DNA of 64,000 nucleotides, taken from Asparagopsis taxiformis. Lineage: Eukaryota > Rhodophyta > Florideophyceae > Bonnemaisoniales > Bonnemaisoniaceae. The translations under genes were made by a program, and so were the position numbers. Below are positions 4,228-41,539 of the stretch, piece after piece. The stretch's first letter is position 1. Each line of letters opens with the position of its first letter. The stretch lies in the NCBI GenBank assembly GCA_030407315.1, contig JALQPE010001919.1, positions 41,908-105,907 on the forward strand, in the 5' to 3' direction. Below the pieces are notes generated by a model that saw nothing but the letters and a program-made list of their open reading frames with translations, was not told the origin of the DNA and searched no databases.

Positions 4228-4624
4228 TCTTATTACGTATAGTTTCGCTCGGCAGATTTGAACAAAACCACTGCAATAAACCTTTAGCTCTGTTTCGTAC
4301 CATTTGTAAACCTTCAGAGAGGAAAGATTGTTGTCATTTTTCCCCGTAATCATGGGCGCATGAAGAGCACAAATCAACCAATCAGCCGTACTCCATTCAC
4401 AACAGAGATTGATTTGACATAGGTATTTGGCGCTGTATCCTGGGCCAACTATCGCCGTCGAGGAGGCCACTCTGCATCCATATTAGATGAACGTCTCACC
4501 GGTGTCATTCCTACTCACCATGCATCTTGATCAACCGATATACTCGTCTTGCAGCCATCTCTTTTCCACGCTACCTGCAAATCTAACTACCGTTCAGAGA
4601 TCATTCGTTCTGCTCCCACAGCAG

Positions 4625-6996
4625 ATGGCTCCGCGTTTTCATCTCGCCGAAGCTAGGAATGACGCACTGGAGAAAGCCGAATCATACATGAAATCTCTTT
4701 CTAGGGACTCCGAATCAGAACACGCTCCTTCTGTTGAAACCATATCTATGCCGCGTAGCCACGATGAAGTGATGCATGGAATAGTGGGTACTTCTTCCGA
4801 CTCTTTCCGATCCACGGCTTCGATGTATAAACCATTTTCACGACTACAACACAGGAAGAATTATGAAAGTGTGACGAGGTCCAGTTCAGTTCGTCGAAAG
4901 AGCAGCATGCTAGAGAGGCGGGTGAAGTTCAGTTTGTCACTGCCCAAAACAGATATAAGAAGAATACCATGCTGCAATAAGGGATGCTTCAGAAAAACCG
5001 ACCATGTTTTCCTTCGGAATGAAGCAGAACGAGTTTTGTTGTACAACAGGGACGATCGCCGCAGGTATCTGCACGCTCTACTGGAACCAAACAGTAACCG
5101 GTTCTACTTCTCTGGGAAGCCTGTGTGTTGCGAATTCCTAGAGTACAGCTTCAAGTTTTCACGACACCTGCAGACCTCGGTAAAGAAAGCTTGCCAGAAT
5201 GGGAGTCTTCCATTTATGGCTTCTCCGAAACGAATTTCTGGCTCTCCACATAGAGATGCAGCGATCTGCTTCCTTGAACGCTTGTCTGCCTCGACTGCTG
5301 ATATGATGCCAGACAGTGGAGAGAAGCATCTGCCTCTTTTCGAGAAGAAAGCTGTGTACGAGATGTTCTGCGACCAATTTACGTTATTATACTCAAACCG
5401 GAACCCACCAACTTTGAGCTACTTCTACAACACCTGGAACACGTTTTGTGCGAATATCAAGGTTCGGCGTGTCCAGAGGTTCACGAAATGTTCGGAATGT
5501 GAGTACATACGTGATAAACTGGAAGCCATCGGGACAGATATTCAACGCACTGCTCCGCTTCTGGAACGTCGCCAGCGTCATATCGAGATGGTGGCACGGG
5601 AACGCAGGGAGTATCAAAAGAAGTGTGAAGAAGCGTCACTATATCCCTCCAGGTTCACGTCTCTGATCGTAGACGGGGCTGATCAATCAGGATACGGTCT
5701 TCCCCATTTCACGGTATGTACAAAAGCGACTGTTGGTCATAGTTTGAAGGTGAGACTCATAGGTGTTCTCGAACATGGTGTCCGAAAGCATCTTTCGTTG
5801 TACACACTTACTGCTGAATTCGAAACTGGGGCAAATCATATCATCGAGGCAATTCACAGGACTCTTACCAAAAAGGCTATGGGTTCGAGTCTTCAGGGAA
5901 CACTGTACTTGCAGGTAGACAATTGCACGAGAGAGAACAAGAACACGTTTCTGTTTTGCTATCTAGAATGTCTCGTTGCTTGGGGTGTGTTTGAAGAAGT
6001 ACACGCTTCTTTCCTACCCATCGGCCACACCCATGCAGACATCGACCAGGCCTTTAGCTGTACCTCTCGCAGGCTACGTTCCCACAACGCCGTCACTATG
6101 GAAGATTTAGTTGAACAACTCAGAGTGTCCTATACTCCGGAACCCTCTGTCTCTCGTATGTTGCACGTGGCAAACTTCTCCGGTCTCTGCCGGAAGAATT
6201 CGGTTGGAAAAGTGCATGCTTTCTCAAAATTCAGATACTTCAGGTTTCACTGATCCCAAGATACAGGAAAAAGTTATGACTTCTACAGAACTGCATGCGA
6301 TGTTAAGATATTTTGTGAAGACAACTGGAAGCCTCTCCCAGTTCTCACTCCGGGGCTGAATGGTTTCCTGGTTAAGCCTCTGAACTGAAACGAACACCGA
6401 GTAATATCATACGTTCTCCTCCAGATCGACATGAGGTCCTGCTCCGTTTTTGTTCGGAAGAGAGCAGGGTCAATAACAATTCTAAAATGGATCAGCTACA
6501 TGAGCTTCTACGACAGGTTTATGAGGAAAGGGAAGATTCTTTTCATTGGAACCTCACCGAATGTTTCGAGATGAATGGCATGTATCGAAAAGGGAATCGG
6601 AACGTCGTCCCGATGGAGGAGGAACTCATGTCGACTGCAGATTGCATACCACTATCAGACTTGCCCTACTCGGTGAATCGCTTCGTGGCTGTAAATGGAG
6701 AAGACTGTACTACTGAGATGCCGTTCTGGCTAGGACAAATTATGAGTTGTAAGAAAAACAACGAAGGGGTTATTTGTCAGCTGTGTGTTCGGTGGTACGA
6801 GGTCTACGATGGAAGAGACGCATGGTCAGGTAAGTATAGGCCTGCCATGCTTCGCAAGGGGAGAACAACAGTGGCTTGGAAGGGACATATTTCGGTTGAC
6901 ACCGTCATTGCAGAGTTCCCTTCACTAACAAACAAGATGATAAGAGCTGGGGTAGAGAAAGAGATCAGGTCAGGCCTGACGTCTATTCCGAAGTAA
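4625..6996 (+). pseudogene. RNase H-fold (DDD-type) transposase, copy A, broken
   Basis: This is the degraded counterpart of the intact gene at 35353-37854. The frame is open from 4487, but ATG 4625 matches the start context of the intact copy. It keeps a cysteine-rich N-terminal domain, a CxxC knuckle near 5490, and the putative catalytic blocks VDGADQ, QVDNCTREN and GHTHADIDQ. The frame then meets TGA at 6251-6253 where copy B has an arginine codon, compatible with a CGA to TGA transition. A further frameshift lies near 6380. The C-terminal reader-like domain (6487-6996, PFWLGQ...VRWYEVY) is still readable. The upstream methyltransferase frame is undamaged, so the two genes have decayed unequally. 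Confidence 0.85.
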
Positions 6997-7099
6997 AAAC
7001 GCCTCGTCTTCGACGACACGAGTAGTTCAATCAACTTTGTTATCCTATTCAATCAATATGAAAAAACATCTCTCATGTTCAATCAACTTCAGAAAGTTG

Positions 7100-7145
7100 G
7101 ATTCTGGTTTGGAAAGTACGTTCTGTTCATAGCGAAATCAGTGTT
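7100..7145. repeat. Right terminal inverted repeat of copy A
   Basis: This 46-bp end aligns with the right end of copy B (37948-37993), with scattered mismatches. Shared blocks include GAAAGTACGTTCTGT and the terminal CAGTGTT. The end is preceded by three spaced TTCAATCAA repeats, as in copy B, which are candidate transposase-binding sites. The sequence changes abruptly to copia gag immediately after it. Confidence 0.85.
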
Positions 7146-8899: not shown

Positions 8900-8907
8900 A
8901 AGAGCCA

Positions 8908-23195: not shown

Positions 23196-24496
23196 AAGTA
23201 GAAAGCGTTCATACTCGTTTTCGGCCTGTGGCTGTCGAAGTCCTTGTTATGCCTTCGTGCTTGCTGTAAAAATTGTTCAATATGGTTCATATCCTCATGG
23301 CTTTAATGCCACACTCTGAATCTGTCTGCTGGACTATAAATCATGTTGCACCTGCGTAGGTGTAGGATAAATACCTTTATCCTCGTGCAACCACAAAGTC
23401 ACACCGGACATGTGGTTCATTGGTCTTATAGTAGGCACTAGAGCTGGGAGGTGAGCGGGTGACGTCGATATCCAAAAATTTTCATAAAGATTATACGAAG
23501 CTTTTCGTATAATGATTGTTTGTATCATCACCTGTTAGACTATAAAGAATGTTGTGCCTGCGCAGACACTAGAGTTGGCATGTCGCCTAATCCCAACATC
23601 ATCTCGTTTCTCCATGTTGTGTGTCCACCCATACGTTTCTTTTTTGTTCCAGACTGCCACTACGCTCACTGTGCCAGTACGAAGAAGCAGACAGGCTGTC
23701 CACACCACGACGCCGCCTGGATCACGAGAGATACCTAGGCATAGATAATAGAGAGATCAAGGGAGGAAAACAATAAACAGAGTCACGGCACTATCACAGG
23801 CAAACACGGTATGCCATGCAGTATCGAATGATGAAACTTTGCCCATGTTCGCAGCCTCAAATCTCCTCCAGCGATTAGCAACTCGCCTTTTCTACCTATT
23901 CTGTCGCCCGGGACTTTCTTTACTACTCTACCTTGCGTGATAGAACAGAAATGTGTGCTTACATACGTTGCATGAGATATTCCTTGAGTCATATGATGGA
24001 CGCTTACTGTCCCTTATCCCTCTTTTATTCATATCTCATTCTGCCATACATTAATCACTTCTTCAATCTGTGATAATTGAGGTGGAATAACCTGTATAAC
24101 ACAACGCTGCGTATATCGGACACCCTTTCATCTTCGCTTCCGATACAACCCTGGGCCTTGCACTATTGTATTTACCGTGACCCGCTTAGTTCTACTTCTG
24201 CACTGTTGTGTACAGCCTCCCCTTTCTATGGCTCTCAACTACTTGTCCAATATGACAAATGGCATTCTATGTGCTCACGTGGCCAATCCAAAAACCCTCG
24301 CTACATTATATATTCGCACATCCTAGATGTGGTATATTATGTGCATTATTGTACGAACGGTTTGTCACTGCGCTCACTGTTCAAGTGGTAAGAGGATGAC
24401 AGACTGTCCGTCTCGGAAGGATGCCGCAGCACTCGAGAGAAATACATCAATGAGAGCAGGAGTTGGGAGCGAGAAAAAAGATATACTAGCAGGTCA
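23196..24496. other. Intergenic stretch between MULE and transposon B
   Basis: No convincing gene is seen. It contains copies of a dispersed repeat around GACTATAAAGAATGTTGTGCC (23537-23586, and a weaker one at about 23330-23375) and AT-rich sequence. The last four bases, GTCA at 24493-24496, match those after the right end of transposon B. Confidence 0.5.
23537..23586 (+). repeat. Dispersed 50-bp repeat, copy 1
   Basis: It matches the reverse complement of 39873-39922 with a few mismatches. The conserved core contains TATAAAGAAT followed by a CTGCGCAGACACTAGAG block. Similarity fades on both sides, so this is a fragment of a larger repeat, perhaps an old LTR promoter. Confidence 0.7.
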
Positions 24497-24542
24497 AACA
24501 CTGGTTTTTGTCTGTACAGAACGTACTTTCGAAACCAGAATC
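24497..24542. repeat. Left terminal inverted repeat of transposon B
   Basis: A 46-bp sequence, 45 positions matching the reverse complement of 37948-37993. It is followed by two TTGATTGA motifs at 24559 and 24579. Confidence 0.9.
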
Positions 24543-24827
24543 CGAAAAATTTTCGATGTTGATTGACTAATCGTAAGTTGATTGAATTGTGGCCAATGGG
24601 ATGAAGATATTGACTGACTGGGCGGCATTGCGCTGACAGTTTCAAGTATAGCACTGCCGTGCTCAATACGATCGCTAGACAGCCTGTCACAGCTCTGTTC
24701 ATTTCTGCCTTCAAGTCTGGCTGGAACCGTATTGGTAGTTTCCAATATGATCTGATCTTATCACAATTGGTAGTAGATGAAAATATCAGAATTTATTTTA
24801 TAAAAAATTATATGTGCACCGTGTTTC

Positions 24828-25115
24828 TACTCACTGGGAGATAGCTATTTGGAGGATCGAAGACTGCTGTCTGGTGATCAAATATGCGAAATCTCTTTTG
24901 TGGAACTGACTCGCAATCCTGCCAACACTTTGAGACGTATATACCAAGAGTTGAAAATTGATGTTCCTGTGGAGGTTGTCGAACAGCACATCGATATGAC
25001 TGGTTCCGTCCACAACTTCAAGAAGAATATCCACCCACCGGTATCCGAAGCGGCCAAAAGGTTTGTGTACTCCAAATGGAAGCGCAGATTTGATGAGTTT
25101 GGATACGATCAGTAG
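24828..25115 (+). pseudogene. Sulfotransferase C-terminal fragment
   Basis: About 95 codons resemble the C-terminal end of sulfotransferase-family proteins. The run ...EDRRLLSGDQICEISFVEL is followed by TRNPANTLRRIY, then a HNFKKNIH segment and a final W..RF.EFGY. In the family these correspond to the 'F-E-D-L..dP..tlr.iy' region and the tail. The N-terminal catalytic half with the PAPS-binding P-loop is absent. The frame emerges from AT-rich sequence near the transposon end without a start codon. It is a captured 3' gene fragment rather than a functional enzyme. Confidence 0.65.
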
Positions 25116-25332
25116 CGTGGAACAAGAGTATGTGACAGTCAAAGAGTAGATTGTTTAGTTTAATGTATCAGTCTTCTAAGCTTGATGTTAGTGCGAAATT
25201 AAAGGTGCCCGGCAAGTCTTGCTCGTTTATGACAACAAATAGTAGGAGCAACGGCTAACAGTGCGTGTAAGCGATAACGGTAGCTGCAGCATCAGCCCCC
25301 ACGCAAATTGAGCACCGGATGGAAATGAGCTG

Positions 25333-25689
25333 CTACACGGTCGCAAAACGATCAATTCCATGATCATCTGCCAGAAGCTCGTCATGACAGAGGCGGCATG
25401 AGACGAAGAGGCCGGAGCATTTTGCTTTGAGTTTGTAATTTCGTGCATAGTGCTTACATCCAAGAATAGGTTGCTGTTGAGAAGCGATTTGAGCAGCTTG
25501 TTGGTGAGTGACGATGTTTCCTTGGCGGTCGAGACGGTCATATTGCATTTTGAGAAGGTCGGAAACGTTATTCTGGAGGCGGAGCATTTGTTCGCGCATG
25601 TAGGGAGTGATCAAGTTATTGTGACAGATGTTGCTTTTGGCTTGAGCGTCAGAGCTTTGGCAGTATCCTCCGCGACATGACATCCATCA
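25333..25689 (-). pseudogene. CHY zinc-finger fragment (N-terminal part of a CHY/RING E3 ligase)
   Basis: The fragment encodes a polar, glutamine-rich region and then a CHY zinc finger: GCKHYARNYKLKAKC...CRLCHDE...DDHGIDRFAT. It ends abruptly in a stop right after RFATV, where the family continues into the CTCHY finger. That continuation is found upstream on the same strand, in the neighbouring fragment. The order of the two halves is thus inverted relative to the family's normal order. Only a TGA codon separates this part from the preceding fragment, in the same frame. Confidence 0.75.
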
Positions 25690-26392
25690 CTGCGAGTTAG
25701 ATGACCCCGCAACCAATTGTTGGCTGGGTGCCTGATCAACAGGCTCGCGACCAGCAGCTTGAGCTTCCGAGTCAACATCGAAGCTGTATAGAACATTTGT
25801 GTTGTAGCTTTCACAGTCAACATTTGTACATTTGTGATATTCAAAGTGATATTGTACTTCGCCTTTCTCACCACAATCATTGCAACGAATCATCGAGCGC
25901 TTGTTGTCGTGTTCTGGAGGCATCGGCTCGTTGCGAATGTGCTCGTCAATTTGTTCAAAGAAAGATGTCATGTCAAGTAACGAACGCTTCTAAGCGGAGA
26001 TTGGTAACGGCCAGCTGTGTATTCTTCAAAACAATCCTTGTGCATAGCATGACGCACCTCATGAAGACCATGGCTTCTGTCGACGTAAAGAGATAAACCC
26101 TGCAAACTGGACAATCTGCGTGCAGTGCTACACGCCGACATTGATGGTGAGTCTTAGACTCGATGGAGACACTAGCGTCACATATATCGCAATGATAGTT
26201 GTCGATGCCAAGCCCCTTACCAAGACGACAGATATTGCTGCGATCGCAGAGATAGATGTTTTTGTTGGGTGTATTCTCGTAAAACTGACAGTGCGGACAA
26301 AAGTAGTGCGCAAAGGAAGTCTTGCATTTGACGCATTTGGGACCGACGTCCTGCTCGGTGAGGCATATCATGCAAAGGACTTTTTCGGTCCC
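25690..26392 (-). pseudogene. CTCHY-RING-zinc ribbon fragment of the same E3 ligase type
   Basis: From about 26392 downward it encodes a CTCHY finger (KCVKCKTSFAHYFCPHC...GKGLGIDNYHC...), then CPVCRVYLFTS of a RING domain. A frameshift near 26045 interrupts the RING (FMRC then HAMHKDCFEEY in another frame). The last RING cysteines are replaced, and a second frame change lies near 25990. The final zinc-ribbon segment (EPMPPEHDNKRSMIRCNDCG...YHKC) is intact. This domain set is that of RCHY1/Pirh2-like and fungal CHY ubiquitin ligases. It has an in-frame stop immediately 5', no start codon and lost zinc ligands, so it is non-functional. Confidence 0.8.
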
Positions 26393-26499
26393 TCAACCAA
26401 CCGCCCCGCCTCCATCTATAGTTTCCTATGACGTCTCGGGAGCCACGAAAACCTCCTTCTGAATGAAAGGGCGCTGGTGTCTTTGATGGTACACAATCT

Positions 26500-26916
26500 C
26501 ACTCTCACTACAGTGATCCAGGTCCTGAAGTGTCCGGTACCATTTTGTAATACAAGTGGAGATCGAGAGAAAACATCGAGGGTAAGGTAGTGAAGAGGGT
26601 TAATAACAACAAGTCGGGCATGGTTGAAGCCATGTTTCCGACTGGGAAAACAACAGTCACACTTGAAGTTGTCGATTCAACAGGTGATGTTGCGAAAGAT
26701 ACTGCCGTAGTAGAAGTGAGGGCGTCTACCGCCAACGGCGCTTATTGTTACTCGTATGATTTCGGTGACTGTTATAGTATTTTAGATTACGTTTCCATCA
26801 GCCAACAGCTCAATGGTGAGCCTAAACCACTGTTCGGAGGTAGAACTGATCGTATCGATTTCCAGAGAGCGTCAGACTTTGGTAACTTCAACTTTGCTCA
26901 GAATTCGTTTGCTGTC
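26500..26916 (+). pseudogene. PKD-like extracellular protein fragment
   Basis: An open frame encodes MVEAMFPTGKTTVTLEVVDS followed by a ...KDTAVVEVRAS strand, the pattern of PKD or other immunoglobulin-like beta-sandwich repeats. A tyrosine/cysteine-rich stretch and ...NFAQNSFAV, reminiscent of the start of a PA14-like domain, follow. It then joins the RecQ fragment tail to tail near 26916-26928. No start, signal peptide or end of the original gene is present. Family assignment is by pattern only. Confidence 0.45.
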
Positions 26917-26928
26917 CCGGACAGCATT

Positions 26929-28800
26929 GGGCATCAAGACGAAAACATTCCGACCTGATAATGCTGCGTTCATGGCTTCTCTTTGATTAGGACGGAATCC
27001 AGGGTTTCCAAACAAGTTGCGGTTTTCCATTGCTAGCCGGAAGGACCATAGGAACTTTTTCTCAGGCCCGTCTTGCCATTTCATTATCTCTTGTTTGTCT
27101 ACGGCTTGTGCTCCACCCTGGGTACCATGTATCTCACGCAGCATTCCTTGCCGTGGCGCCTCAGTCGGTGTAAACGCCATCGGAAGCTCTTCATCATCTC
27201 CGGGCGGAGGAACTTCTTCGGCAGGTAGTGGTTCTGCGGATACGAACAGTCGTGGATCCAATGAATCGACATCTACTGTAATATATTCAGGGCGCTGATA
27301 CGACTGTCGGCGCTGTTCTCGATTTACACACGAGTTAGCTGCAGCGCCATTCAAAGGGAAATTGTGCTGCTGTGCGTCTGTTCTTGGTTGTGCATACCCT
27401 GTAGGCCGGGGAGGAGGGAAGTAATTGTTTATGATGTTGACATTACCGGAAGGATTGCCATATTGAGGATCCACTTAAAGAGGAACAATGTTGGATGTGT
27501 TAGGCTCAGAGTGTGAAGTTCCGTAACGAAGAGTCTGGGCGACGGTACTCGCATCAGGTCTGGGGACGTCATTGGTCTCAGGCGTCACGGGCAAAAAGGC
27601 TTGGGCAACCCGGTTCCTGGCCTGAGCGGTGGGTACGGGAGTCGTAGATGAATGGTTATTTTCGACAGCACGCAACTTCTCCGTTAGTTCCTTGATCTGA
27701 GCTTGGCATTCCGCTTGACATTTGGTGCATACAGCAATAGTTTCTGAATCGATATCGAGCGCAAGCAGACTGGATGTCTGATATAGGCAATTATGTAGTG
27801 CAATAATGCGGCGCTTTAGACTTGCAGAATTCGCACCCCTACCTCTTGAGCACGGGTCGGATGTCTGCACCGCAGCAGCAGAAAAATTCGAGGCTGGTTC
27901 ATTGCGAACAGGTAAATTTGATGTGCTCTAATGGGAAGTTGCGTGCACGCATTCGTCATGACGCATTTCAGGCTGTCGCGTGCGTTCCGCTATCACCGAG
28001 TCGACATCAATCTCAGCAAAAAGCTGGCCATCTGAATCAAGAATCACGGTTTCGACTGGAGGGTTTGAAACACTAACATTCTTGCTTGATGTACCGCTGG
28101 TTGTGACGAAGGAATTTGCTGGTAGGTCATGAGTTGAGCGGTTAGGGGGTTGCGCAGGTGAGTCACAAACGATAACTTCCGGCGGTGGTGGCTGTCTCAT
28201 TCGTCGAGCATTAGCAACTTGGGTGTCGGGACAGGTGAAATCCTCAATTTCATCTGGTTCATCATGAGATCTGGGCGAAGAAAGGTCTATTGTATCTACG
28301 CATGGGTTTCGTCGCACAGTTGGTGGTATTCGACTACCCATAGGCGCTGGAAGTTTGCTTTGTTCGCGGTTTCGTTGAAGGGGAAGTGAATTCAAATTTT
28401 GAATACGCTGCAGTTGCGGGCGATTGAATGTATGCATAGTGGATTTTGGTGGCTGTCGTAATGCAATTCCTTGGTCGATTGTTTGGGTTGATACAGTGGG
28501 AGGTACTATCCTGGTTTGGGCGGCTGCATAGAGTGATTCTCCCTTGAACGCACCGGTACAACAGATGGTGTATCCGCTTGTAGAGAGGGATTGGTGTGCG
28601 CATGTCTGGTGATCGATGCATCACTTGGAATCGCCGTGCCTGTACTTGGAATAGGCACAGAGGATGCTGCTGATGTTCGCTGCGTACCCCTATCAATCAG
28701 CGGTGGATGTGCCTGAGGCGGACGAGGTTTCCGACGAACATAAGTTGGAGGAGGTGGCGCAGGGACTCTGTGTCCTTCGCTGGTGAGCTCTTGACGACGC
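26929..28800 (-). pseudogene. RecQ helicase 5' fragment, truncated at motif I
   Basis: Reading leftward, a long proline- and serine-rich, probably disordered region leads to the conserved start of a RecQ helicase core: NRNLFGNPGFRPNQREAMNA then LSGRNVFVLMP. In RecQ proteins this is followed by the Walker A TGGGKS; here the sequence changes exactly at that point. Two in-frame stops (27928-27930 and 27475-27477) and a frameshift near 28530 show decay. The missing helicase body is not elsewhere in the window. This is a captured 5' fragment of a host gene. Confidence 0.75.
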
Positions 28801-29284
28801 GACGCGCAGCTCGGGAATGTGTTACCATGTTGGTGTTCGTCCCAAAAAAAGGAAACAACAATTGTTCCGGTCGTCTAAAAATTGAAAACAACGCCCAACC
28901 TGATGACAGTAACCTGAACCGCCCTCGCGACGAAAGCGGGAAGGGAGATGCACAGATCCAGGTAGTACAAAATGTCCTGGAGGAGATGGCAACCATGTCT
29001 TCATCACACACATGGTGCTGGACACAGAGGATTTGGGAGACGGAAGGGAGAGGGAACGATTTGAAGGCCTTGGAGGGTCATGGATGCACGGCTTACAGAA
29101 CATACTATCTGGCAGTGAAATGGCCGGCGTGCTTCCAGTAGAAAGCCGCCGGCCGCGGGTACAAATTTTATCAGATGTCACAATTCAAAATTATGACTCA
29201 AAATTTTGTACCGACCAGTTGTGCTTCAAATTGAAGCACATCGCTCCGTGAAATGTTGTACCTCACACGCCGTACCTCCCGCGA
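28801..29284. other. Unassigned stretch inside transposon B
   Basis: A plus-strand frame of 144 codons (28707-29141) partly overlaps the RecQ fragment and resembles nothing known to me. No other signal is seen. Confidence 0.4.
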
Positions 29285-29697
29285 ATAAGTGGCTGTCTTT
29301 GTGTTGCACTCTTCGAGCGTCATGTGCACATGTGTGCACCTGAGACGCTATGTGTGTATCTGAGACGCCATGGCGTGGATGTCCACCAACAAGTGGCTGT
29401 GTGTTTGTTGCATTCTTTGAGCGTAATTTGCACTATGATTGTGCACATGTGTGTACCTGAGACGCCATGGCGTGGATGTCCGCCAATAAGTGGCTGTGTT
29501 TTTGTTGTATTTGAGCGTAATGTGCACAATGATTGTGCATGATTTTGCACATGTGTGTACCTGAGACGCCATGGCGTGGATGTCCCGCCAGTAAGTGGCT
29601 GTGTTTTTGTTGCATTATTTGAGCGTAATGTGCAAAACGATTGTGCACATGTGTATACCTGAGATGCCATGGCGTGGATGTCTCTTCCGGCGCCTCC
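29285..29697. repeat. Minisatellite, about 100-bp unit, about four copies
   Basis: The unit contains AAGTGGCTGTG, a TTGAGCGTAATGTGCA block, a CACATGTGT block and GAGACGCCATGGCGTGGATG. Starts near 29285, 29388, 29487 and 29592 give periods of about 99-105 bases. It lies between the gene-fragment region and the core-less transposase paralogue. Confidence 0.9.
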
Positions 29698-29777
29698 GTG
29701 AGCTCACGAAAGACAGGCTGACAATGAGTGTTGCAAAGTAACTTTGCAAAACTTTGGAAAACTCTTTTACGGTGAGA

Positions 29778-30800
29778 CTAACGGAGGCGCTGGGAATGTA
29801 GTTTCAAGTCCTGAAAAATACTTTTTGGTAAGCGCATTTCGGGGAGAGAGGGGAATGTGGCAATCACCGAGCTGGGATCGACGAAGTCACACCAGGGAGT
29901 AGGTGTATTCAATACAAAGCAAGGCTTGTAGCGGCTTTCGAATGCATCTCCTTCCTTCTGAAACCAGTGTATGCGCAGCTTTGTGACGCCCGCCCCTCTC
30001 TTCCTTACGCTCTGTACCTTTCCGACCCAGAATGGCTCTTCAGGAGTACACTCATTACCACGGATGACCACAAACCCATTTTTTTCGGGTAACGGGAGAG
30101 AGGGGCGCATGGTGGTGTCCGTGGAGTTGTCTTGGTCCTCGTCTTGCGCGCGCGCATCCATTTTCTGATGTCCTTGATCTGCCATTTCCTGATTTACACC
30201 TGAAGCCACGTCCCGACGTCCAATTCCGTCACTTTTTGTACCGCTTGTCCCCCTCCCATCTGCACCGCTTTGCCCGGTTTCCTGCAATTCCGCGAGTCCG
30301 CCAGTATCCGTTCCATCTAAATTTTCCACTCTGTGAGCTCCTCGGCGCGTAGAATCACCGTCCAAAATCTTCACGATTCCCTTGACCACCAGCATCTGAT
30401 AAGCCCGCTTTAGAATTTTTTTGTTAGACCACTGCATCTCCCTGGAGAACCCGAATGACTTGGTTAGAAACTCATAGCACACGACCCTTCCATTATACGT
30501 ATACATCTCGGAGACACAGTCATAGAGCGAACGCAAATACTTGTTGCGAACAGCAGTAGTGCTCACTGACATTGCTTTCGTATCTTCGGACAGCTTGTCC
30601 CCATCGACAACAGCAAAACATGCCCGATTATCACAGCATTTAAAGGAACCCAGTTTTCCAGCCGCATTCAACTCAGCGATCTTCGCTGCTCTAGCGCTGT
30701 AGCGCTGAGTACGAGACGAGGCTGGCCGGGATGGTGACGGAGACGGTGGTTGGTGGTGCGTTGCATGCTGTAAATTGCGCTTCTTGAAGGGCGCGTCCAT
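29778..30800 (-). CDS. Transposase-derived protein lacking the catalytic core
   Basis: The gene encodes 340 residues from ATG 30800 in a strong context (CAACCATGG). A longer frame extends upstream but only with a GTG start. The N-terminal part (KCCDNRACF...NKYLRSLY...NGRVVCYEFLTKSFGFSR) aligns with the cysteine-rich domain of the transposase in the same element (KTCCEKRCF...RPVCYRFLEYSFKFSR). The C-terminal part (PFWVGKVQSV...IHWFQKEGDAFESRYKP) aligns with the transposase C-terminal reader-like domain. The 500-residue catalytic region between them is replaced by a short polar linker. A TATA box precedes the start. The combination suggests a DNA- or chromatin-binding regulator, perhaps a repressor or adaptor of transposition. 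The frame is intact. Confidence 0.75.
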   Translation of the reverse strand: MDAPFKKRNLQHATHHQPPSPSPSRPASSRTQRYSARAAKIAELNAAGKLGSFKCCDNRACFAVVDGDKLSEDTKAMSVSTTAVRNKYLRSLYDCVSEMYTYNGRVVCYEFLTKSFGFSREMQWSNKKILKRAYQMLVVKGIVKILDGDSTRRGAHRVENLDGTDTGGLAELQETGQSGADGRGTSGTKSDGIGRRDVASGVNQEMADQGHQKMDARAQDEDQDNSTDTTMRPSLPLPEKNGFVVIRGNECTPEEPFWVGKVQSVRKRGAGVTKLRIHWFQKEGDAFESRYKPCFVLNTPTPWCDFVDPSSVIATFPSLPEMRLPKSIFQDLKLHSQRLR

Positions 30801-30853
30801 GGTTGATAGGATAGTGAAGTGAAACAGAATCCAAGTATGAACGCAGAACACTA

Positions 30854-30861
30854 TATTTATA
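30854..30861 (-). promoter_or_regulatory. TATA box of the core-less paralogue
   Basis: TATAAATA on the minus strand, 54 bases before the ATG, a spacing that would give a 5' leader of about 25 bases. Confidence 0.65.
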
Positions 30862-32124
30862 GACTTCGGAACGAACTTCTGATCAAGTTCGGTTGCCATG
30901 TGGCTGCCGAATGTGCAGCGCTTTGCTGATGACTGATCAGTCGAATGGCATACATTTGAATAGTTCTGACAAAATGTCTTTTCGACACCACATCTGAGCA
31001 GTTCCACGACAGGTCGTGAACTGAACAGTTCCAACGAGCTGGAACATAATGTTCCAAGTGGTAACACTGTTCTATATCAGGAAAGTCTATATGGGTGTGA
31101 GTAGGAAATGCCGCAAACAATGTTGATTATCCTGTTCGGTGAACTGCATTCAACCTTTCATCTTCAAAGTGTTCGTGACATCAATAGACAAATTAGGAAG
31201 TAATCTATGTAGTTCAAGCCTTCAATATGGCTCTGAAGTTCAAGTAGCCAGTTTCGAAATGAGGTATCGCATCTGGTGGCACAACTTGGATAAGTTGAGT
31301 GCCTTCGAATAGACTGTGGACAGATATGATGCTGAACGAACTGATATTTTGGTTCGCACCAAAAGTCATGGTGAGGGTAGCGGTAAAGGCAGCAGTTGTT
31401 GATAGTTGAAGGTATACTTTGGAACGATCAGAAACAAAATTTTTTCGAATGCGAACCATAGCTATGAATCGTGCACTCACTGAAAGACCTATCCCGCAAT
31501 ATGGATACTACGTACATTGCTTCCACAAGCTGTAACACAGAAAAACCCTGGAAATGGTACGCAAACGTGTCAAGAAATTATTTGGCATACAGCAACTTGG
31601 CTGTGATGATCTTGGACATCAATCAGAACAGGAAAACGTACGAAATCGGCTCAAGAACCAAAATACGAAATAAAATCCCGTCATATGATTTGTAATTGGA
31701 TGGAACTGGCCCAACTGCATAACGAAATAGTAATTTCCCATTACTGATAACAAATTTAGGGCCGTCCCGGCATAACAACTAGAAACCTATGTGAGCTGCA
31801 GCGCCCCCTGCACATCAGATCTAAGAGTGACTTGGCGCCGACGATCGTAGCACGTGACAAAGACTGATTTGGCCTCATGAGCTTCCATCAGTTATACACT
31901 GTGGGTTCTATTGTATGTCAAGGGTTCTTTTTTCACTTTCGTTCATTGCCTGGAGTGACTGGAAAGCTCCCGTCTTCTGCTGCTAGAACATTCTTTCGTT
32001 CTGGACCTCTCCGGCCTTTCTTTCTCCGCTCTAAGGGTAGGCTGAACTGGATTCGTACCGGATATCAGGACCCCCATTTATTTCCATTTCCTCTTGACAT
32101 CTGCAGGCATTCTGTACCTAAACA
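30862..32124. other. Spacer between the divergent genes of transposon B
   Basis: This region lies between the minus-strand paralogue and the plus-strand methyltransferase. It contains a minus-strand frame of 82 codons with an ATG (31214-31459, listed separately). No palindrome comparable to the one in front of copy A and no second TATA box close to the methyltransferase start were seen. Confidence 0.4.
31214..31459 (-). CDS. Small hypothetical protein or gene fragment
   Basis: Eighty-two codons from ATG 31459 encode a threonine- and phenylalanine-rich sequence with an alternating hydrophobic pattern that could be beta-sheet. No family is recognised. It may be a further captured fragment rather than a gene. 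Confidence 0.2.
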   Translation of the reverse strand: MVRIRKNFVSDRSKVYLQLSTTAAFTATLTMTFGANQNISSFSIISVHSLFEGTQLIQVVPPDAIPHFETGYLNFRAILKA

Positions 32125-35085
32125 ATGAAGAAGCCAAGCACAAGACCTGGAGCGAAAACTTCCGGGCATGGAAAGGAACTTCGTTCCGGAAGATTTCAAG
32201 ACTCAGTTGAAGTTCTATTCGGGGATGTCATGGAAGGATCAATGAATACCCGTGTCGACCCCCGCGGGTGTATACCGCTTACTGCTGTTCGGAATATCGT
32301 GCGGTCTGGTGTGGAACGAATGAAACTGATATTCACTGGATCGATGAAATATGATTCGGCGTGTGATGGAACAGATGGTGTAGATGGCTTTGTAGCCGGT
32401 TCCGACAATGCCATCGTTGTCGAGCTGACAGGGTCGTTGAAAAGACACGTGCTGGATTTCTTCAAATCCCAAACTGGCTCGGATGGAGAGCTCCTTAGCG
32501 AATCGAAAGCGAAAGAGAAAGTAGAAAGCCGCTCTGTCTGGTACGGTGTCGTCGACGGGATGCACAGACTTACGGCAATACAAGAGCTGATGCAAGAAAT
32601 ACCAGAAAGGTGGGACTCGTTCTTATGGCCAGTCACAATTCTTGATGGGGGGCAGTCTATTCATGTACTGAAGCAGCTCGGGAGACACCAGAATCGAAAG
32701 CATAACTCGAACTTTTACATCGAAACCACTTTCTATGATATGCTTCATGGCATGAAGGAGGAGGCTGAGAGATTACAGAGCATGTCATCCCGGAAACCCT
32801 CGGCCAAGCAAGTAGCAGCAGCATACGACGGCTCCACACACTTGAAGGACAATACCATCAGACAAACTGCTGCCACTGCTCTTCGACTACCCGACAGGGT
32901 GGTGGATGAGATCGGTTTGATAATGAATTCAGAGTTCCCTGATCTTGTAGGATCCATTGCTGGTACCAAAGACGTTCGTCGAGGAGGTGATTCAAAGATA
33001 TCTACAGTGGAAACCAGAGTATATCGGAACTTTATTAACATTACTTCCCTGAAGTCGGCGACGAAGTTTATGAACGCTTCTGGACCAGATGCTGAGGAAA
33101 TTCAAGTTTGCACATTGTATAGAATGCGAGATCTTTCCAAATTGAACAAGTTTAAACCGATTTCATACAAGATAACAGTACAGCAGTTCGAACTCACGTG
33201 TGCAGCAATGAAAGAGGCTCGCAAATTTGAAAGTCTACATGAAGATAGTACATGGCCTCCTGAAATGGAGGCAACGAAAAAAAACTTGCTTCGCACTACA
33301 AAGTTTGATTCCGAAGTCACAGAAAACCTCGGCAATGACCATGACGTTCTGAATTCACTCCTGAACCAGTACAGGAAAGTTTGTCCACAGATAGCCCCCT
33401 TGAAAGAGAAGAAATATGCCGAAAGTCGAAACAAAGAACCGGACCAGGATTCTAAAGAGAAGGAGACCGATTTTCGGCAAGATGAAAGGACATCCGGAGA
33501 TCCCGACCCTAATTCCCGCGTGGGAGACGATGTTGACCTGATCCACGGTCCACCCCCGTGCGAAGTGCAGGAATTAAATAAGCAGGAAAATGTTGGAGAA
33601 GAGCCTAAGTTCAGTCAGGTTACTACTGGCTCTGTCCAAGACGCAGTCGGAATGGGTACTGAAGCAAAAAAAAGTTCGAAAAATGGGTCAGCACCGAAAA
33701 CACTGGAGAAAGTTGCAGAAACTCAAAGTGTCAACTCTGAGAGACTGAACCTACGCGCAAAGCGAAACTCCCTTGGGGCTGGCAAACATGACAACATTGA
33801 ATACGTATCCGAAATGAAGATAACCTGCCACCAGATGAAATGGCAAGAGTTCGATAAGGAGTTCTGGACAGATGAAAAACCACTTCTAGATATGATGCTA
33901 ACTGATCCTCCGTACGGTACACCTAGATCCAGATCGCTTCGTAATTCACCTTACGATAACTTTATTTCCGACAAAGATATCAAGGATCTATGCCAGTTTT
34001 CAAGAAGGGTTTTGAAGCCTGGGGGCTGGTTCTTCTGTTTCGTTTCTGTTCGGAACTTTCCCCTCCTCACTGATGAGCTCCGAAATGCAGGCTTTGAATG
34101 TCCGGACTACCCTTTTGTTATTATGAAGGATACGAGTACTATTCAGCACCACCGAGGCGATACGTTTCCACAGAATGCTTGTGAATTTGCCGCTTTCGCA
34201 AGAGCTCCGGGAATCCGAACAGATGGGTTCAAACCTGACCTTCGTAGCCCGTACCACTTCATCTCAACTGACACGAAACGAAAGTTCGCTGCAATTGCTG
34301 GAGTTCCTGTTCCGAAGGACAAGCTCCTCACTCCAGGAACAAAGTCACCAGTTCTGACAGAAGAAAAGAATATCAGTTTGCTTTCGGAAGTAATCAATAC
34401 CTTCTGTCCGGAACGTGGTTCTGTCATCGATGCTTACGGGGGTACATTAACAACCGCCATTGCAGCCATGAGAACTGCTCGTTCGTGCGTGATAATTGAG
34501 GCCAGTGCCAACACTTTTCGTTTAGCGTACGAGAGACTCCGTTCTGTAGCTGAAATATTATACAACCAAGAAATCAAGCCTATTCGAAGGTCTAAGAGGC
34601 GGAAAACAGGAGAATGCGTGGAGGACACTATACGCTCTTCCCAGGAATCTGTTCCCAACCAGGAATTGGGTTCTGGTCTCGACAAAGAAGGATTTCAGGA
34701 ACGGAAGGACGACAGAAATTGCCAAGCGGAAAGTGAGCATGATGATTGGCCAGATCACATATTCCGAGGCGGGGATATTGTCAATTTGTGCTTATCTGGG
34801 AAAACAGTGGGAGAAGCAACTTTGCTTCGTCCATTGTCTACTGGTGATCGATTTCAAACTACTATTCACAATATCCCCCTTTCTAGATTCGCAAAGAAGG
34901 GAGAGAAACTCGTTTCGTGCTACAAATTCGAACTGAGAGAGGGTTCCGGAGACCGAACCTATCCTTACTGTTACGGTGGTGTGGAGCCCCCTCCGGAAAC
35001 GTTGAAGGGACTGCTTGGAATATTCGCTTGGGATATTTTCAGCATGGAACCGAAACGCAGTCAAAGTTTTCCCGAGTCGAAATAG
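32125..35085 (+). CDS. ParB-like domain / beta-class DNA methyltransferase fusion, copy B
   Basis: The gene encodes 986 residues from ATG 32125 and is intact. The layout equals copy A: a ParB/sulfiredoxin-like domain with VVDGMHR around residues 142-148, a possible helix-turn-helix, a charged linker, then the methylase. Catalytic TDPPYG lies at 593-598 and the AdoMet-binding DAYGGTLTTA at 769-778. It ends in the same unassigned C-terminal domain (HNIPL...YPYCYGGVEPPPETLKG). Similarity to copy A is high across the domains and low in the linker, as expected for two related but not recent copies. It is followed 267 bp later by the transposase on the same strand. The likely activity is amino-methylation of adenine or cytosine in DNA, with the ParB-fold part giving DNA binding or possibly nuclease or nucleotide binding. 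Confidence 0.88.
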   Translation: MKKPSTRPGAKTSGHGKELRSGRFQDSVEVLFGDVMEGSMNTRVDPRGCIPLTAVRNIVRSGVERMKLIFTGSMKYDSACDGTDGVDGFVAGSDNAIVVELTGSLKRHVLDFFKSQTGSDGELLSESKAKEKVESRSVWYGVVDGMHRLTAIQELMQEIPERWDSFLWPVTILDGGQSIHVLKQLGRHQNRKHNSNFYIETTFYDMLHGMKEEAERLQSMSSRKPSAKQVAAAYDGSTHLKDNTIRQTAATALRLPDRVVDEIGLIMNSEFPDLVGSIAGTKDVRRGGDSKISTVETRVYRNFINITSLKSATKFMNASGPDAEEIQVCTLYRMRDLSKLNKFKPISYKITVQQFELTCAAMKEARKFESLHEDSTWPPEMEATKKNLLRTTKFDSEVTENLGNDHDVLNSLLNQYRKVCPQIAPLKEKKYAESRNKEPDQDSKEKETDFRQDERTSGDPDPNSRVGDDVDLIHGPPPCEVQELNKQENVGEEPKFSQVTTGSVQDAVGMGTEAKKSSKNGSAPKTLEKVAETQSVNSERLNLRAKRNSLGAGKHDNIEYVSEMKITCHQMKWQEFDKEFWTDEKPLLDMMLTDPPYGTPRSRSLRNSPYDNFISDKDIKDLCQFSRRVLKPGGWFFCFVSVRNFPLLTDELRNAGFECPDYPFVIMKDTSTIQHHRGDTFPQNACEFAAFARAPGIRTDGFKPDLRSPYHFISTDTKRKFAAIAGVPVPKDKLLTPGTKSPVLTEEKNISLLSEVINTFCPERGSVIDAYGGTLTTAIAAMRTARSCVIIEASANTFRLAYERLRSVAEILYNQEIKPIRRSKRRKTGECVEDTIRSSQESVPNQELGSGLDKEGFQERKDDRNCQAESEHDDWPDHIFRGGDIVNLCLSGKTVGEATLLRPLSTGDRFQTTIHNIPLSRFAKKGEKLVSCYKFELREGSGDRTYPYCYGGVEPPPETLKGLLGIFAWDIFSMEPKRSQSFPESK

Positions 35086-35352
35086 TATTCCATCGATATC
35101 CAGACACTTTGTCAATGACAAATCATTTTTCATGATCTATTGGTGCTAGTTAATCCGGATTAGAGGAACCAGATTTCATTATTTGGTTCCGGCGGCGGAT
35201 ACTGACCGTCGCTGCCCGTTAGTATCATGAGAAATCGAGCTGAAGTCCACTGAGTCATTTTGCAGAAATCCATTTGTTTCCATTTCTATTACCTCAAGCT
35301 TCCATCAAAGCCACTCCGCAGTCACCGAAACAAATCTGATCGTTTCCCCACC

Positions 35353-37854
35353 ATGAATCACTTTCGGCCGCCACTTCAATTCCGTTCCCAATTGCAGTCG
35401 AGTGAAGAGCAGTCGAGTGAAGAACATATGTTGCGCTCGTTATCTTCTCGTCACGTGAGCGATACATCTCCATGTGGTACTCCTTTCATCGAGTATCAAA
35501 GCACAGGAAGCATCTCATGGTACAACGCTGTTCTCTCGAGACCTGGTTCTGGTCCCGGCAACGGCACGCAGAATAACACTGCACACAGTCACTCCGAGGA
35601 GAGTTCCGATTTTGGTAACGAAACAAATAACATTTCAACCTCGCCCATCTCCAAGCCTGTAACAAAACTGAAGAGGCCATTTTCTAGACTTCGAAATGGA
35701 GAATGCGCTACTTCTGATCACATAGCAGCTGTTCCGTCTCAATCTACGATGAGTACAATGCGGCAGAAGAGAAAAAAATTCATCAACTCTCTCTCAGCTA
35801 TGGACATTCGCAAAAAAACGTGTTGTGAGAAGAGGTGCTTCTGGAAAACCGATATCGTATTCTTGCGCCACGAAGCAGGAAGAGTCCTTCTATGGAACAG
35901 GGAAGAACGGCGGAAATATTTACTGAGCATGCTACAGGCCAACAAGAAAGTGTACTATTTCTCAGGAAGGCCCGTTTGTTATCGCTTCCTCGAGTATTCC
36001 TTCAAGTTTTCGCGACATCTCCAGAGCTCAGTTAAAAAATCTGCTGAAGAAGGAACCTCAGTCTTGTTCAAAGGTGCGAGAAGAGATGCTGCTTCACCAC
36101 AGAGGGATGCAATCATCTGTTTCCTCGACCGTTTAGCATCTTCTACTGCCGATGATATGCCAGACAGAGCAGAGAAACACCTACCTCTCTTTCAGAAGAG
36201 ACCTGTATACGAAATGTTTTGTGATCAGTACGACGTTCTTTATCCCGGAAAGGCATTTCCCACTTTGAGTTACTTTTACACAACTTGGAAAAAGTACTGC
36301 AGTCATATCAAGGTCAGGAGAATCCACAGATTTATGAAATGTTCAGAGTGTGAATACCTACGGGATCATCTGGAAAGGATCGGAACTGATTCTTCTCGCA
36401 CTGCACCACTTCTTGAGCGCCGTAAACTGCATATTGAAATGGTATCACGGGAGCGAAGGGAGTACCAGAAGAAGTGTGAGCAGGCGGCGCTATTTCCATC
36501 AAGATTCACATCATTGATTGTCGACGGGGCTGACCAGTCCAGCTACGGCCTACCTCATTTCATTGTCAATACGAAAGCAACCGTGGGCCATAGCTTGAAA
36601 GTGAAATTAATAGGCGTTCTCGAGCATGGAGTTCAGAAGCACCTTTCGCTCTACACGATGACTGCTGAGTTCGAATCCGGCGCTAACCACATAATTGAGG
36701 CGCTACACAGGACTCTTACAAGGAAAGCTATGGGATCAAAACTGCAAGGGACACTATTCGTGCAAGTTGATAATTGCACAAGAGAGAACAAGAATAGGTT
36801 TCTGTTCTGCTATCTGGAGTGCCTTGTCGCATGGGGTGTTTTCCTTGAAGTTCAAGTTTCGTTCCTACCAATTGGGCACACTCATGCTGACATTGACCAA
36901 GCGTTCAGTTGCACCTCGCGGAGGTTGCATTGCTATAATGCAGCTACCATGGACGATCTAATTGGGGAGCTACGGCTTTCTTACACACCGGAGCCATCTG
37001 TTTGTCGTATGAATCACGTCGCAAATTTCTCTGGCCTTTGCATGAACGAAAATTCGATTGGAAAGGTACATGCATTTTCAAAGTACAGGTACTTCAAGTT
37101 TTTCCGCTCTGAAAGTTCGGATCGTCGTACTGGCTGGTACAACACGGCATGTAACGTCAAGCTCTCCTGCGACGATGAATGGGAGCCCCTCCCAACAATC
37201 ACACTGGGTCTAAAGGGCTTCACATTGGTACCACCGGATCTCAAAGTAGTTCCTCCCACAGTGTTGAAAAGTCCGCCGGATCGAGACGAAGTCATGTTAA
37301 GACTTCGAGCAGAGGAAACCAGAGTTAATAGTACTTCAAAGATGATGCAATTGCATGCATTGATTGAACAGGTATATTCGAATAGGGATGACCCTTTTCA
37401 CTGGAACCTACATGAGTGCTTCGAGCTGAACGGAGTGTACCGCAATCAAGTTTCGAATAGATTGGTTCTACATGAGGAGGACGAAATTTCGAACGCATGT
37501 TCGGCTCCGTTGACTGACCTCCCTTATTCTGTAAATCGCTTTGTATCCGTAAACGGAGAAGGTTGTACAACCGATATGCCGTTTTGGTTGGGGCAGATAA
37601 AAGCTTGTGAGGAAAACGGTGAAGGGGTTATCAAAAGATTATCAGTTCGGTGGTACGAGGTCTACGATAAGGGGAATGTATGGACCGGGAAGTATCGCCC
37701 TGCAGTGATACGAAAGCGTAATAGGGCGGTACCATGGGAGAGTACTATTTCAGTCGACACCGTCATTGCTGAATTCGCGTCACTCACGAACAAAAGAATT
37801 AGAGTAGGAGTAGAAAAAGAAATCCGAGCTGGGCTAGCATCAATGCTGAGGTAA
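35353..37854 (+). CDS. Putative DDD-type transposase, intact copy B
   Basis: The gene encodes 833 residues from ATG 35353 (context CCCACCATGA); the frame is open further upstream only with TTG. Order: a disordered leader; a cysteine-rich domain (CCEKRC near 157-162); a CxxC knuckle (C330, C333); then an RNase H-like core. Its candidate metal-binding acidic residues are Asp391 in IVDGADQ, Asp473 in QVDNCTREN and Asp513/515 in GHTHADIDQ. The last block matches the GHTHEDID signature of a eukaryotic domain family that I recall as DUF7869. The C-terminal domain (about 725-830; PFWLGQI...VRWYEVY...GKYRP) resembles BAH/Tudor-like readers. The protein would bind the terminal repeats and catalyse movement. 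It sits just inside the right TIR. Confidence 0.82.
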   Translation: MNHFRPPLQFRSQLQSSEEQSSEEHMLRSLSSRHVSDTSPCGTPFIEYQSTGSISWYNAVLSRPGSGPGNGTQNNTAHSHSEESSDFGNETNNISTSPISKPVTKLKRPFSRLRNGECATSDHIAAVPSQSTMSTMRQKRKKFINSLSAMDIRKKTCCEKRCFWKTDIVFLRHEAGRVLLWNREERRKYLLSMLQANKKVYYFSGRPVCYRFLEYSFKFSRHLQSSVKKSAEEGTSVLFKGARRDAASPQRDAIICFLDRLASSTADDMPDRAEKHLPLFQKRPVYEMFCDQYDVLYPGKAFPTLSYFYTTWKKYCSHIKVRRIHRFMKCSECEYLRDHLERIGTDSSRTAPLLERRKLHIEMVSRERREYQKKCEQAALFPSRFTSLIVDGADQSSYGLPHFIVNTKATVGHSLKVKLIGVLEHGVQKHLSLYTMTAEFESGANHIIEALHRTLTRKAMGSKLQGTLFVQVDNCTRENKNRFLFCYLECLVAWGVFLEVQVSFLPIGHTHADIDQAFSCTSRRLHCYNAATMDDLIGELRLSYTPEPSVCRMNHVANFSGLCMNENSIGKVHAFSKYRYFKFFRSESSDRRTGWYNTACNVKLSCDDEWEPLPTITLGLKGFTLVPPDLKVVPPTVLKSPPDRDEVMLRLRAEETRVNSTSKMMQLHALIEQVYSNRDDPFHWNLHECFELNGVYRNQVSNRLVLHEEDEISNACSAPLTDLPYSVNRFVSVNGEGCTTDMPFWLGQIKACEENGEGVIKRLSVRWYEVYDKGNVWTGKYRPAVIRKRNRAVPWESTISVDTVIAEFASLTNKRIRVGVEKEIRAGLASMLR

Positions 37855-37873
37855 CCACTAAGACAAAATAAAA

Positions 37874-37934
37874 TTCAATCAACTTGACATAGCTTCAATC
37901 AATATGACACTTGTCATATCCCCTATTCAATCAT
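37874..37934. repeat. Subterminal TTCAATCAA repeats of transposon B
   Basis: Copies start at 37874, 37894 and 37926 (the last reads TTCAATCAT). Equivalent spaced copies occur near the right end of copy A and, inverted, near the left end of B. Conserved position in three ends suggests transposase binding. Confidence 0.75.
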
Positions 37935-37947
37935 TATGAAAAAACCC

Positions 37948-37993
37948 GATTCTGATTTCGAAAGTACGTTCTGTACAGACAAAAACCAGTGTT
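37948..37993. repeat. Right terminal inverted repeat of transposon B
   Basis: The partner of 24497-24542. It ends CCAGTGTT and is followed by GTCA, which is also found directly before the left repeat. Confidence 0.9.
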
Positions 37994-38436
37994 GTCAGTG
38001 TAATATTCCTGACGGATACAAATTGGAGAAATACTATCTTTGGAGTAATACTCTTGAGCGCAGGAAGCAGCAAATCCAGCAATTCATTCTGCTGTTCTGA
38101 CATGCACAGCTGGAATTTGCGAGCTTGTGACAAAGCTCCAGTGCTAAATATGTGGTGTGTCTTGATTCGGATGGGCGGGGATACAAAAGAACAACAGATT
38201 GTATGTGCTTTCGTTTTGTAGCAGGTCATGAAAAGATGACAGTTGAAATCGTTGCACCAGACGCCGTACTCGTGTAGGAAAGGCAATATCAGAGTTGCGC
38301 AAGCTCGTCATGAAGATGAGTGTCATCGGAAACGTCTGTGTCCTGTATCTCATGGAATCTCGCGCTTCGCGCGCAACCACAGACGACAAAGACGACATCG
38401 TCATCATCATAACCTTCGTCAACGTCACCACCATCC

Positions 38437-38784
38437 ATGCTTGTGTCTCCATTTCCTTTGCCAACGCCGTCATCTTCGGTGACGCCCTCACCAGCTGCAA
38501 CAATCCCGTCTCCATCGCCAATTCAGTTCCCATTCGTAGTCCGATCGAATCCGACCGTGTTCGTCACCCCTATTCCTGGCGTACCCATCGGAGCACCCAT
38601 ACCGCCGCCGGTACCGGTGCCATCGGCTTCACCGTCTGCTAATGGAACTATCATAATTCCGCCGTCAATCGCCGCTGTACCCTCACCTAGTGGCCCTGCT
38701 TTAACCGTAACACCAACTCCGACGGATATAGTGTTTGCGAGTGTGTTCCCCACAGATATGGCGCTCGCCACCATGATGCCCTGA
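38437..38784 (+). CDS. Proline-rich hypothetical protein
   Basis: The frame encodes 115 residues with repeated P-S-P, P-T-P and PPPVPVP motifs and a hydrophobic tail, with no recognisable domain. It could be a fragment of an extracellular protein or a compositional artefact of a C-rich strand. The opposite strand is also open and glycine-rich. Confidence 0.2.
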   Translation: MLVSPFPLPTPSSSVTPSPAATIPSPSPIQFPFVVRSNPTVFVTPIPGVPIGAPIPPPVPVPSASPSANGTIIIPPSIAAVPSPSGPALTVTPTPTDIVFASVFPTDMALATMMP

Positions 38785-39872: not shown

Positions 39873-39922
39873 GGTGACATGCCACCTCTAGTGTCTGCGC
39901 CGGCACAATATTCTTTATAGTC
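39873..39922 (-). repeat. Dispersed 50-bp repeat, copy 2
   Basis: The reverse complement matches 23537-23586 with a few mismatches. The two copies bracket transposon B at unequal distances, and no target duplication was found. Confidence 0.65.
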
Positions 39923-41314: not shown

Positions 41315-41539
41315 TTCTGATCTCTCGTTTCATTGTCTTACCCGGTTCTCATCGCAGGTCTGCGAATTTGTAATTGCCGTTGTTGGGAACTGTCTTTCTC
41401 GTAGATAACAACGGAACTAATTAGTTTACTGTTCTCTGTTAACAAACAGAGGGACGCGATCCGCCGGTTTCTTCCTTCAATTAAGTTCTGAAGCGCTAAC
41501 ATTGTATTGCAGTTTCTGAAAAACCGCCAAGACGCTGTC

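What the first reader, a model, noticed from the sequence alone, without database searches (positions are those of the whole stretch)
24497..37993. A eukaryotic DNA transposon whose conserved cargo is a ParB-fold DNA methyltransferase
Seen: 46-bp inverted ends with one mismatch, GTCA on both outer sides, subterminal repeats, and two intact same-strand genes. One combines a ParB-like motif with beta-class DPPY methylase motifs; the other has three acidic blocks in an RNase H-like arrangement. Copy A repeats the gene pair and the right end. Known: fungal KDZ elements carry TET/JBP DNA-modifying genes, and some retroelements carry cytosine methyltransferases. A ParB-methylase partner with a GHTHxDID-type transposase is not a system I recognise. 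Inference: the methylase may mark element DNA to steer silencing, transposase binding or replication-coupled excision.
Basis: partly seen in the sequence, partly recalled or inferred. Interest (0 to 1): 0.92.

Follow-up and report, generated by a model that had tools for sequence, protein, structure and literature searches.

The report
Algal transposon with own DNA methylase
What is probably a red alga carries dozens of copies of a DNA element that has inserted at many places and whose constant core holds genes for a predicted cutting-and-pasting enzyme and a bacterial-type DNA methylase, which likely marks the element's own DNA and so would give a selfish element its own epigenetic writer.

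Summary
24497-37993 is one complete 13,497-bp DNA transposon with 46-bp inverted ends and GTCA on both sides. The same ends recur in the 141-Mb genome. Both ends were read at 14 sites; 11 carry a 4-bp duplication. Uninterrupted target sequence was found for three sites, one of them 210 of 210 bases identical across the junction. Copy A is a second end-to-end element (13,697 bp, GTAG duplication).

The methylase is not cargo: it belongs to a constant right-hand core, while the left ~4.3 kb is the swapped cargo. The core also holds a gene that was missed, a transposase paralogue without a catalytic core. The transposase is DUF7869, modelled with a Mos1/integrase-like RNase H fold and a BAH-like C-terminus. 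The ParB assignment stays weak here.

ParB-methylases in green, red and brown algal transposons are already in print, so this is a new variant, not a new kind. Not mentioned in what I read: the DUF7869/BAH partner, the paralogue, MTase-transposase co-divergence, SET-fused methylases elsewhere in the genome, and a transposon-based reading of the N6_N4_Mtase expansion reported for Asparagopsis taxiformis. What the methylation does is inferred, not shown.

The parts
24493..24496 (.). left 4-bp target-site duplication GTCA
24497..24542 (+). left 46-bp terminal inverted repeat (AACACTGG...)
24559..24617 (+). left subterminal TTGATTGA-type octamers (at 24559, 24578, 24610; the third with one mismatch)
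24600..28825 (.). variable left cargo arm (limits approximate); in this copy broken minus-strand frames that match a zinc-ribbon/RING (RCHY1-like) gene (about 25370-26495) and, by eye only (no Pfam family), a helicase-like piece (26875-27474)
29323..29713 (.). four roughly 98-bp imperfect tandem repeats inside the core
29778..30800 (-). ORF3, 340 aa (start codon chosen by me): transposase paralogue matching P0002 residues 188-260 and 738-856, no DUF7869 catalytic core
32125..35085 (+). 986-aa protein: weakly ParB-like N-terminal part and beta-class N6-adenine-or-N4-cytosine DNA methyltransferase (DPPY at 594-597)
35260..37854 (+). DUF7869 transposase (first ATG at 35353); D422, D504, D544, D546 invariant in 46 rows; modelled RNase H fold; BAH-like C-terminus 750-852
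37875..37934 (-). right subterminal octamers, inverted (at 37875, 37895, 37927; the third with one mismatch)
37948..37993 (-). right terminal inverted repeat
37994..37997 (.). right 4-bp target-site duplication GTCA
1..7145 (+). copy A, right part of a 13,697-bp element that begins outside the window (contig 35356-49052); TSD GTAG; methylase 1198-4227 open throughout, transposase 4487-6996 frame-broken

Best explanation
This is a DNA transposon that has inserted at many sites with 4-bp target duplications and whose constant core encodes a predicted DUF7869 cut-and-paste transposase, a transposase paralogue without the catalytic core, and a DNA methyltransferase that likely binds and methylates the element's own DNA to keep its copies expressed and mobile. 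Shown: inverted ends, 4-bp duplications, uninterrupted target sequence at three sites, constant core versus swapped left arm, intact methylase motifs, and low amino-acid divergence of the methylase domain between families A and B where silent sites are saturated. Predicted from structure models: an RNase H catalytic core and a BAH-like (histone- or nucleosome-reading) domain in the transposase; ORF3, which shares its two end domains, would compete with or recruit the transposase. Inferred: the product is 6mA or N4-methylcytosine, it is placed on element DNA, and the mark counters silencing, so that the element would carry its own writer and reader.
Confidence: 0.45

Rival explanations
1. Replication-coupled control: the methylase marks the ends so that the transposase acts only on hemimethylated, freshly replicated DNA, as Dam does for bacterial Tn10/IS50 (recalled).
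For: The methylase sits beside the transposase on the same strand; subterminal octamers at both ends could be its sites. The fold match to CcrM, whose mark changes with replication (recalled), fits strand-state control.
Against: The octamer TTGATTGA holds no palindromic 4-base site (by eye) and the recognition sequence is unknown. The octamers may equally be transposase sites.
Confidence: 0.2
2. The ParB-like half is the working part: it binds or spreads on the element as a DNA-bound scaffold, and methylation is secondary or lost in some lineages.
For: In the 13-row alignment the invariant columns lie in residues 163-421 except two. Four proteins have EPPx. Several database hits are short proteins without the MTase Pfam domain.
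Against: The column count is biased: one row (P0011) lacks the MTase domain and one (P0015) lacks the first 160 residues. Between families A and B the MTase domain is the most conserved part (74.9% against 70.6% for residues 30-435), and DPPY is intact in all five lineages read here (B, A, C1591, C1778, C2077). The short hits come from short contigs and may be fragments.
Confidence: 0.2
3. A passenger: a captured methylase gene carried without function for the element.
For: The left arm shows that these elements do carry host-like gene fragments.
Against: The methylase is in the constant core, its frame is open in dozens of copies, its domain is conserved where silent sites are saturated, and it diverges in step with the transposase over six pairs.
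Confidence: 0.07
4. The methylase acts on the host genome at large (for example on genes or rival elements) rather than on its own element.
For: Several methylase-bearing repeat families share one genome: 150 scored N6_N4_Mtase matches of 2605 candidates, a capped list; one family B copy is inserted in another methylase family's gene.
Against: No data on where the mark lies, so nothing here speaks directly against it; it needs a benefit to the element that is not apparent.
Confidence: 0.08

Closest known systems
Sola1-1_Ec32 of Ectocarpus (PMC12477816, section 5 read)
   Same: Large algal DNA transposon with a ParB-like plus N6/N4 methylase protein of similar size (1104 aa); [quoted passage not shown]
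   Different: 21.5 kb; transposase assigned to Sola1. Whether that transposase is DUF7869 could not be tested (sequence not held). No BAH domain, paralogue or SET fusion is mentioned in the section read.
[quoted passage not shown]
   Same: Algal transposons; similar ParB-methylase proteins are said to occur in red and green algal transposons.
   Different: Here the duplication is 4 bp and the transposase is DUF7869; EnSpm/CACTA has 2-3 bp (recalled).
Fungal KDZ elements with TET/JBP genes (recalled)
   Same: DNA transposons that carry a DNA-modifying enzyme.
   Different: An oxygenase acting on modified bases rather than a methyl writer; 8-bp duplications (recalled).
Bdelloid rotifer N4CMT (PMC8885841, listing and abstract start only)
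   Different: Described as a eukaryotic epigenetic enzyme, not as a transposon gene (abstract start).
P-element KP repressor (recalled)
   Same: A transposase-derived protein that keeps DNA binding and lacks the catalytic core, as ORF3 appears to.
   Different: KP arises by deletion within one copy's transposase; ORF3 is a separate gene beside a complete transposase, diverged to 35% between families B and A.

Membership tests
Class II (DD[E/D]) DNA transposon | terminal inverted repeats | tested here: met
   46 nt, 98%; same ends at many copies
Class II (DD[E/D]) DNA transposon | target-site duplication of fixed length | tested here: met
   4 bp at 11 of 14 two-ended sites
Class II (DD[E/D]) DNA transposon | empty sites with one copy of the target | tested here: met
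   three of nine sites asked about; the list was filled by a repeat, so the other six were not tested fairly
Class II (DD[E/D]) DNA transposon | RNase H-fold transposase with acidic triad | tested here: met
DUF7869 (PF25273) | score over the curated cut-off | tested here: met
   162.6 against 26 bits; found in 46 of 46 homologues
Beta-class N6-adenine/N4-cytosine methylase | motif IV (DPPY) before motif I, PF01555 over cut-off, fold | tested here: met
Beta-class N6-adenine/N4-cytosine methylase | methylates DNA; 6mA or 4mC product | not testable with these tools
   needs reads or biochemistry
ParB/Srx fold | ParB N-terminal domain by profile or fold | tested here: inconclusive
   DGxHR motif; phrog_2159 E 0.044, phrog_1033 E 0.13, each in 1 of 13 rows; hhalign against three partition proteins no better than controls; model weak there
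BAH domain (transposase C-terminus) | BAH fold / Pfam BAH | tested here: inconclusive
Sola1 superfamily | 4-bp duplication (recalled) | tested here: met
Sola1 superfamily | transposase homologous to Sola1 | not testable with these tools
   no Sola1 sequence held
EnSpm/CACTA | 2-3 bp duplication (recalled) | tested here: not met
   4 bp; CACTG stands at positions 3-7 of the end
KDZ | 8-bp duplication (recalled) | tested here: not met
   4 bp

The most novel reading that the evidence does not exclude
A self-contained transposon epigenetic system: the element writes a bacterial-type base mark (6mA or 4mC) on its own copies, its transposase reads host chromatin through a BAH domain, and a catalytic-core-less twin (ORF3) tunes it. 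Beside it, other methylase-bearing repeat families in the same genome fuse a DNA methylase to a SET histone methylase, so that selfish DNA would write DNA and histone marks with one polypeptide.
Probability: 0.25. Interest if true: 0.88.

Novelty: new variant of a known kind. Interest (0 to 1): 0.63.

Why it matters
If the mark lies on the element, this would be a eukaryotic parasite with its own writer of a bacterial-type base modification, and the question whether transposons use DNA modification to escape silencing could be tested directly. The element also bears on a published observation: the Asparagopsis taxiformis paper called 66 N6_N4_Mtase genes potentially its most striking feature and discussed it under gene duplication (PMC12115072, section 7 read). 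If the window is from that genome, as size, contig number and red-algal genes suggest, many of those genes are likely transposon copies. That species is grown to cut livestock methane (abstract), and the legend of that paper's figure on the mbb gene cluster contig names two DNA methyltransferase genes there; whether they belong to such elements was not shown here.

Tried and rejected
Separate insertions making up the two ends: rejected by matching duplications and empty sites. Methylase as cargo: rejected by the constant core. Phage or viral relatives: viral-contig scan, 11 stretches matched a pattern, none a relative by tblastn; phage records, one weak MTase-only hit; no phage match for the transposase. 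ParB by profile-profile comparison: not above controls. C-terminal domain of the methylase (880-986): reminds me of a plant CACTA protein domain (recalled); Pfam gave no such family for five pieces tried. A PAP2 family search was run with the mbb bromoperoxidases in mind: none of its 11 contigs is among those listed for the methylase, and nothing further was done. No ParB or N-terminal match was listed for the methylase model, where the MTase domain fills the list.

Papers: PMC12115072 section 7 and passages; PMC12477816 section 5 (both parts) and passages; PMC12695648 and PMC12502185 passages; PMC8885841 listing only; Petroll 2025 not held; Iyer 2011 not read. Searches in held papers: DUF7869, 0 papers; ParB + methyltransferase + alga + transposase + N6-methyladenine, one paper, the Ectocarpus one; Asparagopsis + N6-methyladenine, 0; transposase + BAH domain, 4 papers, listing only; ParB/SET/transposon/methylase terms, 12 papers, listing only. 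These do not show that anything is absent from print.
Full report
THE ELEMENT. The window lies in an unnamed 141.5-Mb genome (contig C1795). Copy B runs from 24497 to 37993 (13,497 bp), with 46-nt inverted ends and GTCA on both sides. The left end recurs with 40 scored hits out of 334 candidates. I fetched 20 further copies 10 kb inwards, short right-end pieces at 20 predicted places, and eight more short pieces. Fourteen distinct insertion sites could be read at both ends. Eleven show 4-bp duplications: gtca (copy B), tatt, acat, caga, aatt, gaat, ttca, acag, taga, and for family A gtag (copy A) and catt. Three do not: C1620, C606 and C479. The last has the right flank of C1701, so a chimaeric join is likely. 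At C1701 the left end has one extra A that its near-identical contig C1702 lacks. Right ends were not found at the predicted place for C1838, C2543 and C504 (the C2543 left flank is the same site as C1701's family A copy), and C1621 has only one flanking base. For five family A contigs and one more (C544, C1819, C352, C384, C431, C635) only the right end was fetched. Nine joined flank pairs, each with one copy of the duplication, were searched as one query. Uninterrupted matches across the junction came back for the C294 site (C232, 210 of 210), the C663 site (36 places in a repeat at 100%) and the C2889 site (three places, 98-99%). The list of 40 was filled by the repeat, so the other six sites were not tested fairly.

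THE GENES. In 18 of the 20 fetched copies (family B) the DNA aligns to copy B from element position about 4,330 rightwards at about 96.5-99.9% in the main blocks; the 19th is family A and the 20th (L028) has the left end but no methylase in 10 kb. Because the fetches stop at 10 kb, this DNA comparison covers ORF3 and most of the methylase; that the transposase and right end belong to the same constant core rests on the protein search, the matching contig positions of both genes and the right-end pieces. The left arm falls into at least four unrelated or partly related versions. Among them are a RING/zinc-ribbon (RCHY1-like) gene (zinc_ribbon_6 E 3e-20), a calcineurin-like phosphatase piece (Metallophos E 2.5e-11) and an NB-ARC-like piece (E 0.001, below cut-off). 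So the cargo is on the left and the methylase belongs to the core. The core gene order is ORF3 (minus), methylase (plus), transposase (plus). ORF3 matches residues 188-260 and 738-856 of the transposase but has none of the catalytic core. It is complete (1-340) and stop-free in 29 rows, and a version with a 379-aa open frame occurs in family A.

HOW OLD IS THE PAIR. Equal contig lengths suggest that the two genes sit on one contig in three database sources (7926, 8748 and 7569 bases); this is inferred from length only. In this genome a methylase only 33% identical (C1591) lies divergently beside a complete 784-aa DUF7869 transposase, and C1778 has a methylase divergent from a 373-aa frame that matches the transposase over residues 161-431 only (38.7%), a truncated one. 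No transposase was found within the 10 kb read around the C2077 methylase. Over six pairs, methylase and transposase identities correlate at 0.96 (15 comparisons, not independent). Both small trees put A, B and one metagenomic source (lgn7926) together, but the methylase tree adds a long-branched row there, so they agree only in part.

HOST. Phycobilisome proteins: 13 matches, 11 of them on one contig (C469), which suggests plastid DNA of a red alga. Genome size and contig number (141.5 Mb, 3,156) are close to those of Asparagopsis taxiformis L6 (142.5 Mb, 3,308; PMC12115072, passages); the identification is inference. That paper reports 66 N6_N4_Mtase genes (section 7 read). Here 150 matches of 2605 candidates were scored, a capped list.

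MECHANISM. Shown: insertion by an element with these ends, and a conserved, open methylase gene kept with the transposase. Predicted: RNase H cutting, BAH-like reading. Inferred: the methylase acts on element DNA and thereby protects or licenses it. I favour counter-silencing over replication-coupled control, because eukaryotic 6mA is tied to permissive chromatin in PMC12695648 (title and passages; red algae not mentioned) and no palindromic adenine site is seen in the subterminal octamers. No reads were examined.

PRIOR ART. [quoted passage not shown] Neither was read (Petroll is not held). It also suggests that they may bind and modify their own transposon. The idea is therefore not new; the DUF7869/BAH partner, ORF3, the swapped arm and the SET fusions were not mentioned in what I read.

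Noticed in passing
L062:2929-6396 (C3) and L064:3714-6905 (C1850): Two other repeated methylase classes in this genome fuse the N6_N4 methylase to a C-terminal SET domain (PF00856 E 4e-6 and 1e-6, over cut-off); the first (about 1186-aa frames) recurs dozens of times. Ends and transposase unknown.
   Followed up: partly
C663 copy; L062 about 3117-3326: One family B copy is inserted inside the SET-fused methylase gene of another repeat family.
   Followed up: partly
L028 (C2291); window 55437-55914: This copy has the same left end but no methylase in 10 kb and may be a non-autonomous derivative; many further left-end hits have the same 90-93% identity class. A piece of it matches the window at 55437-55914.
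   Followed up: no
window 14503-23160: A 2.1-kb perfect inverted repeat (14571-16694 / 20972-23095) around a MULE-type transposase frame at 16868-20512, with further inverted pairs of 78 and 32 nt at its outer edges.
   Followed up: no
window 8556-14411 and 50289-54504: LTR-retroelement pieces: identical direct repeats of at least 300 nt around reverse transcriptase/RNase H (first), and an integrase frame with a sub-threshold chromodomain match (second).
   Followed up: no
window 29323-29713: Four imperfect roughly 98-bp tandem repeats inside the element core, just beyond ORF3's stop codon.
   Followed up: no
L023 (C254): Same insertion site as C2059 by left flank, but with many frame breaks near a contig end, perhaps poor assembly quality rather than decay.
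   Followed up: no
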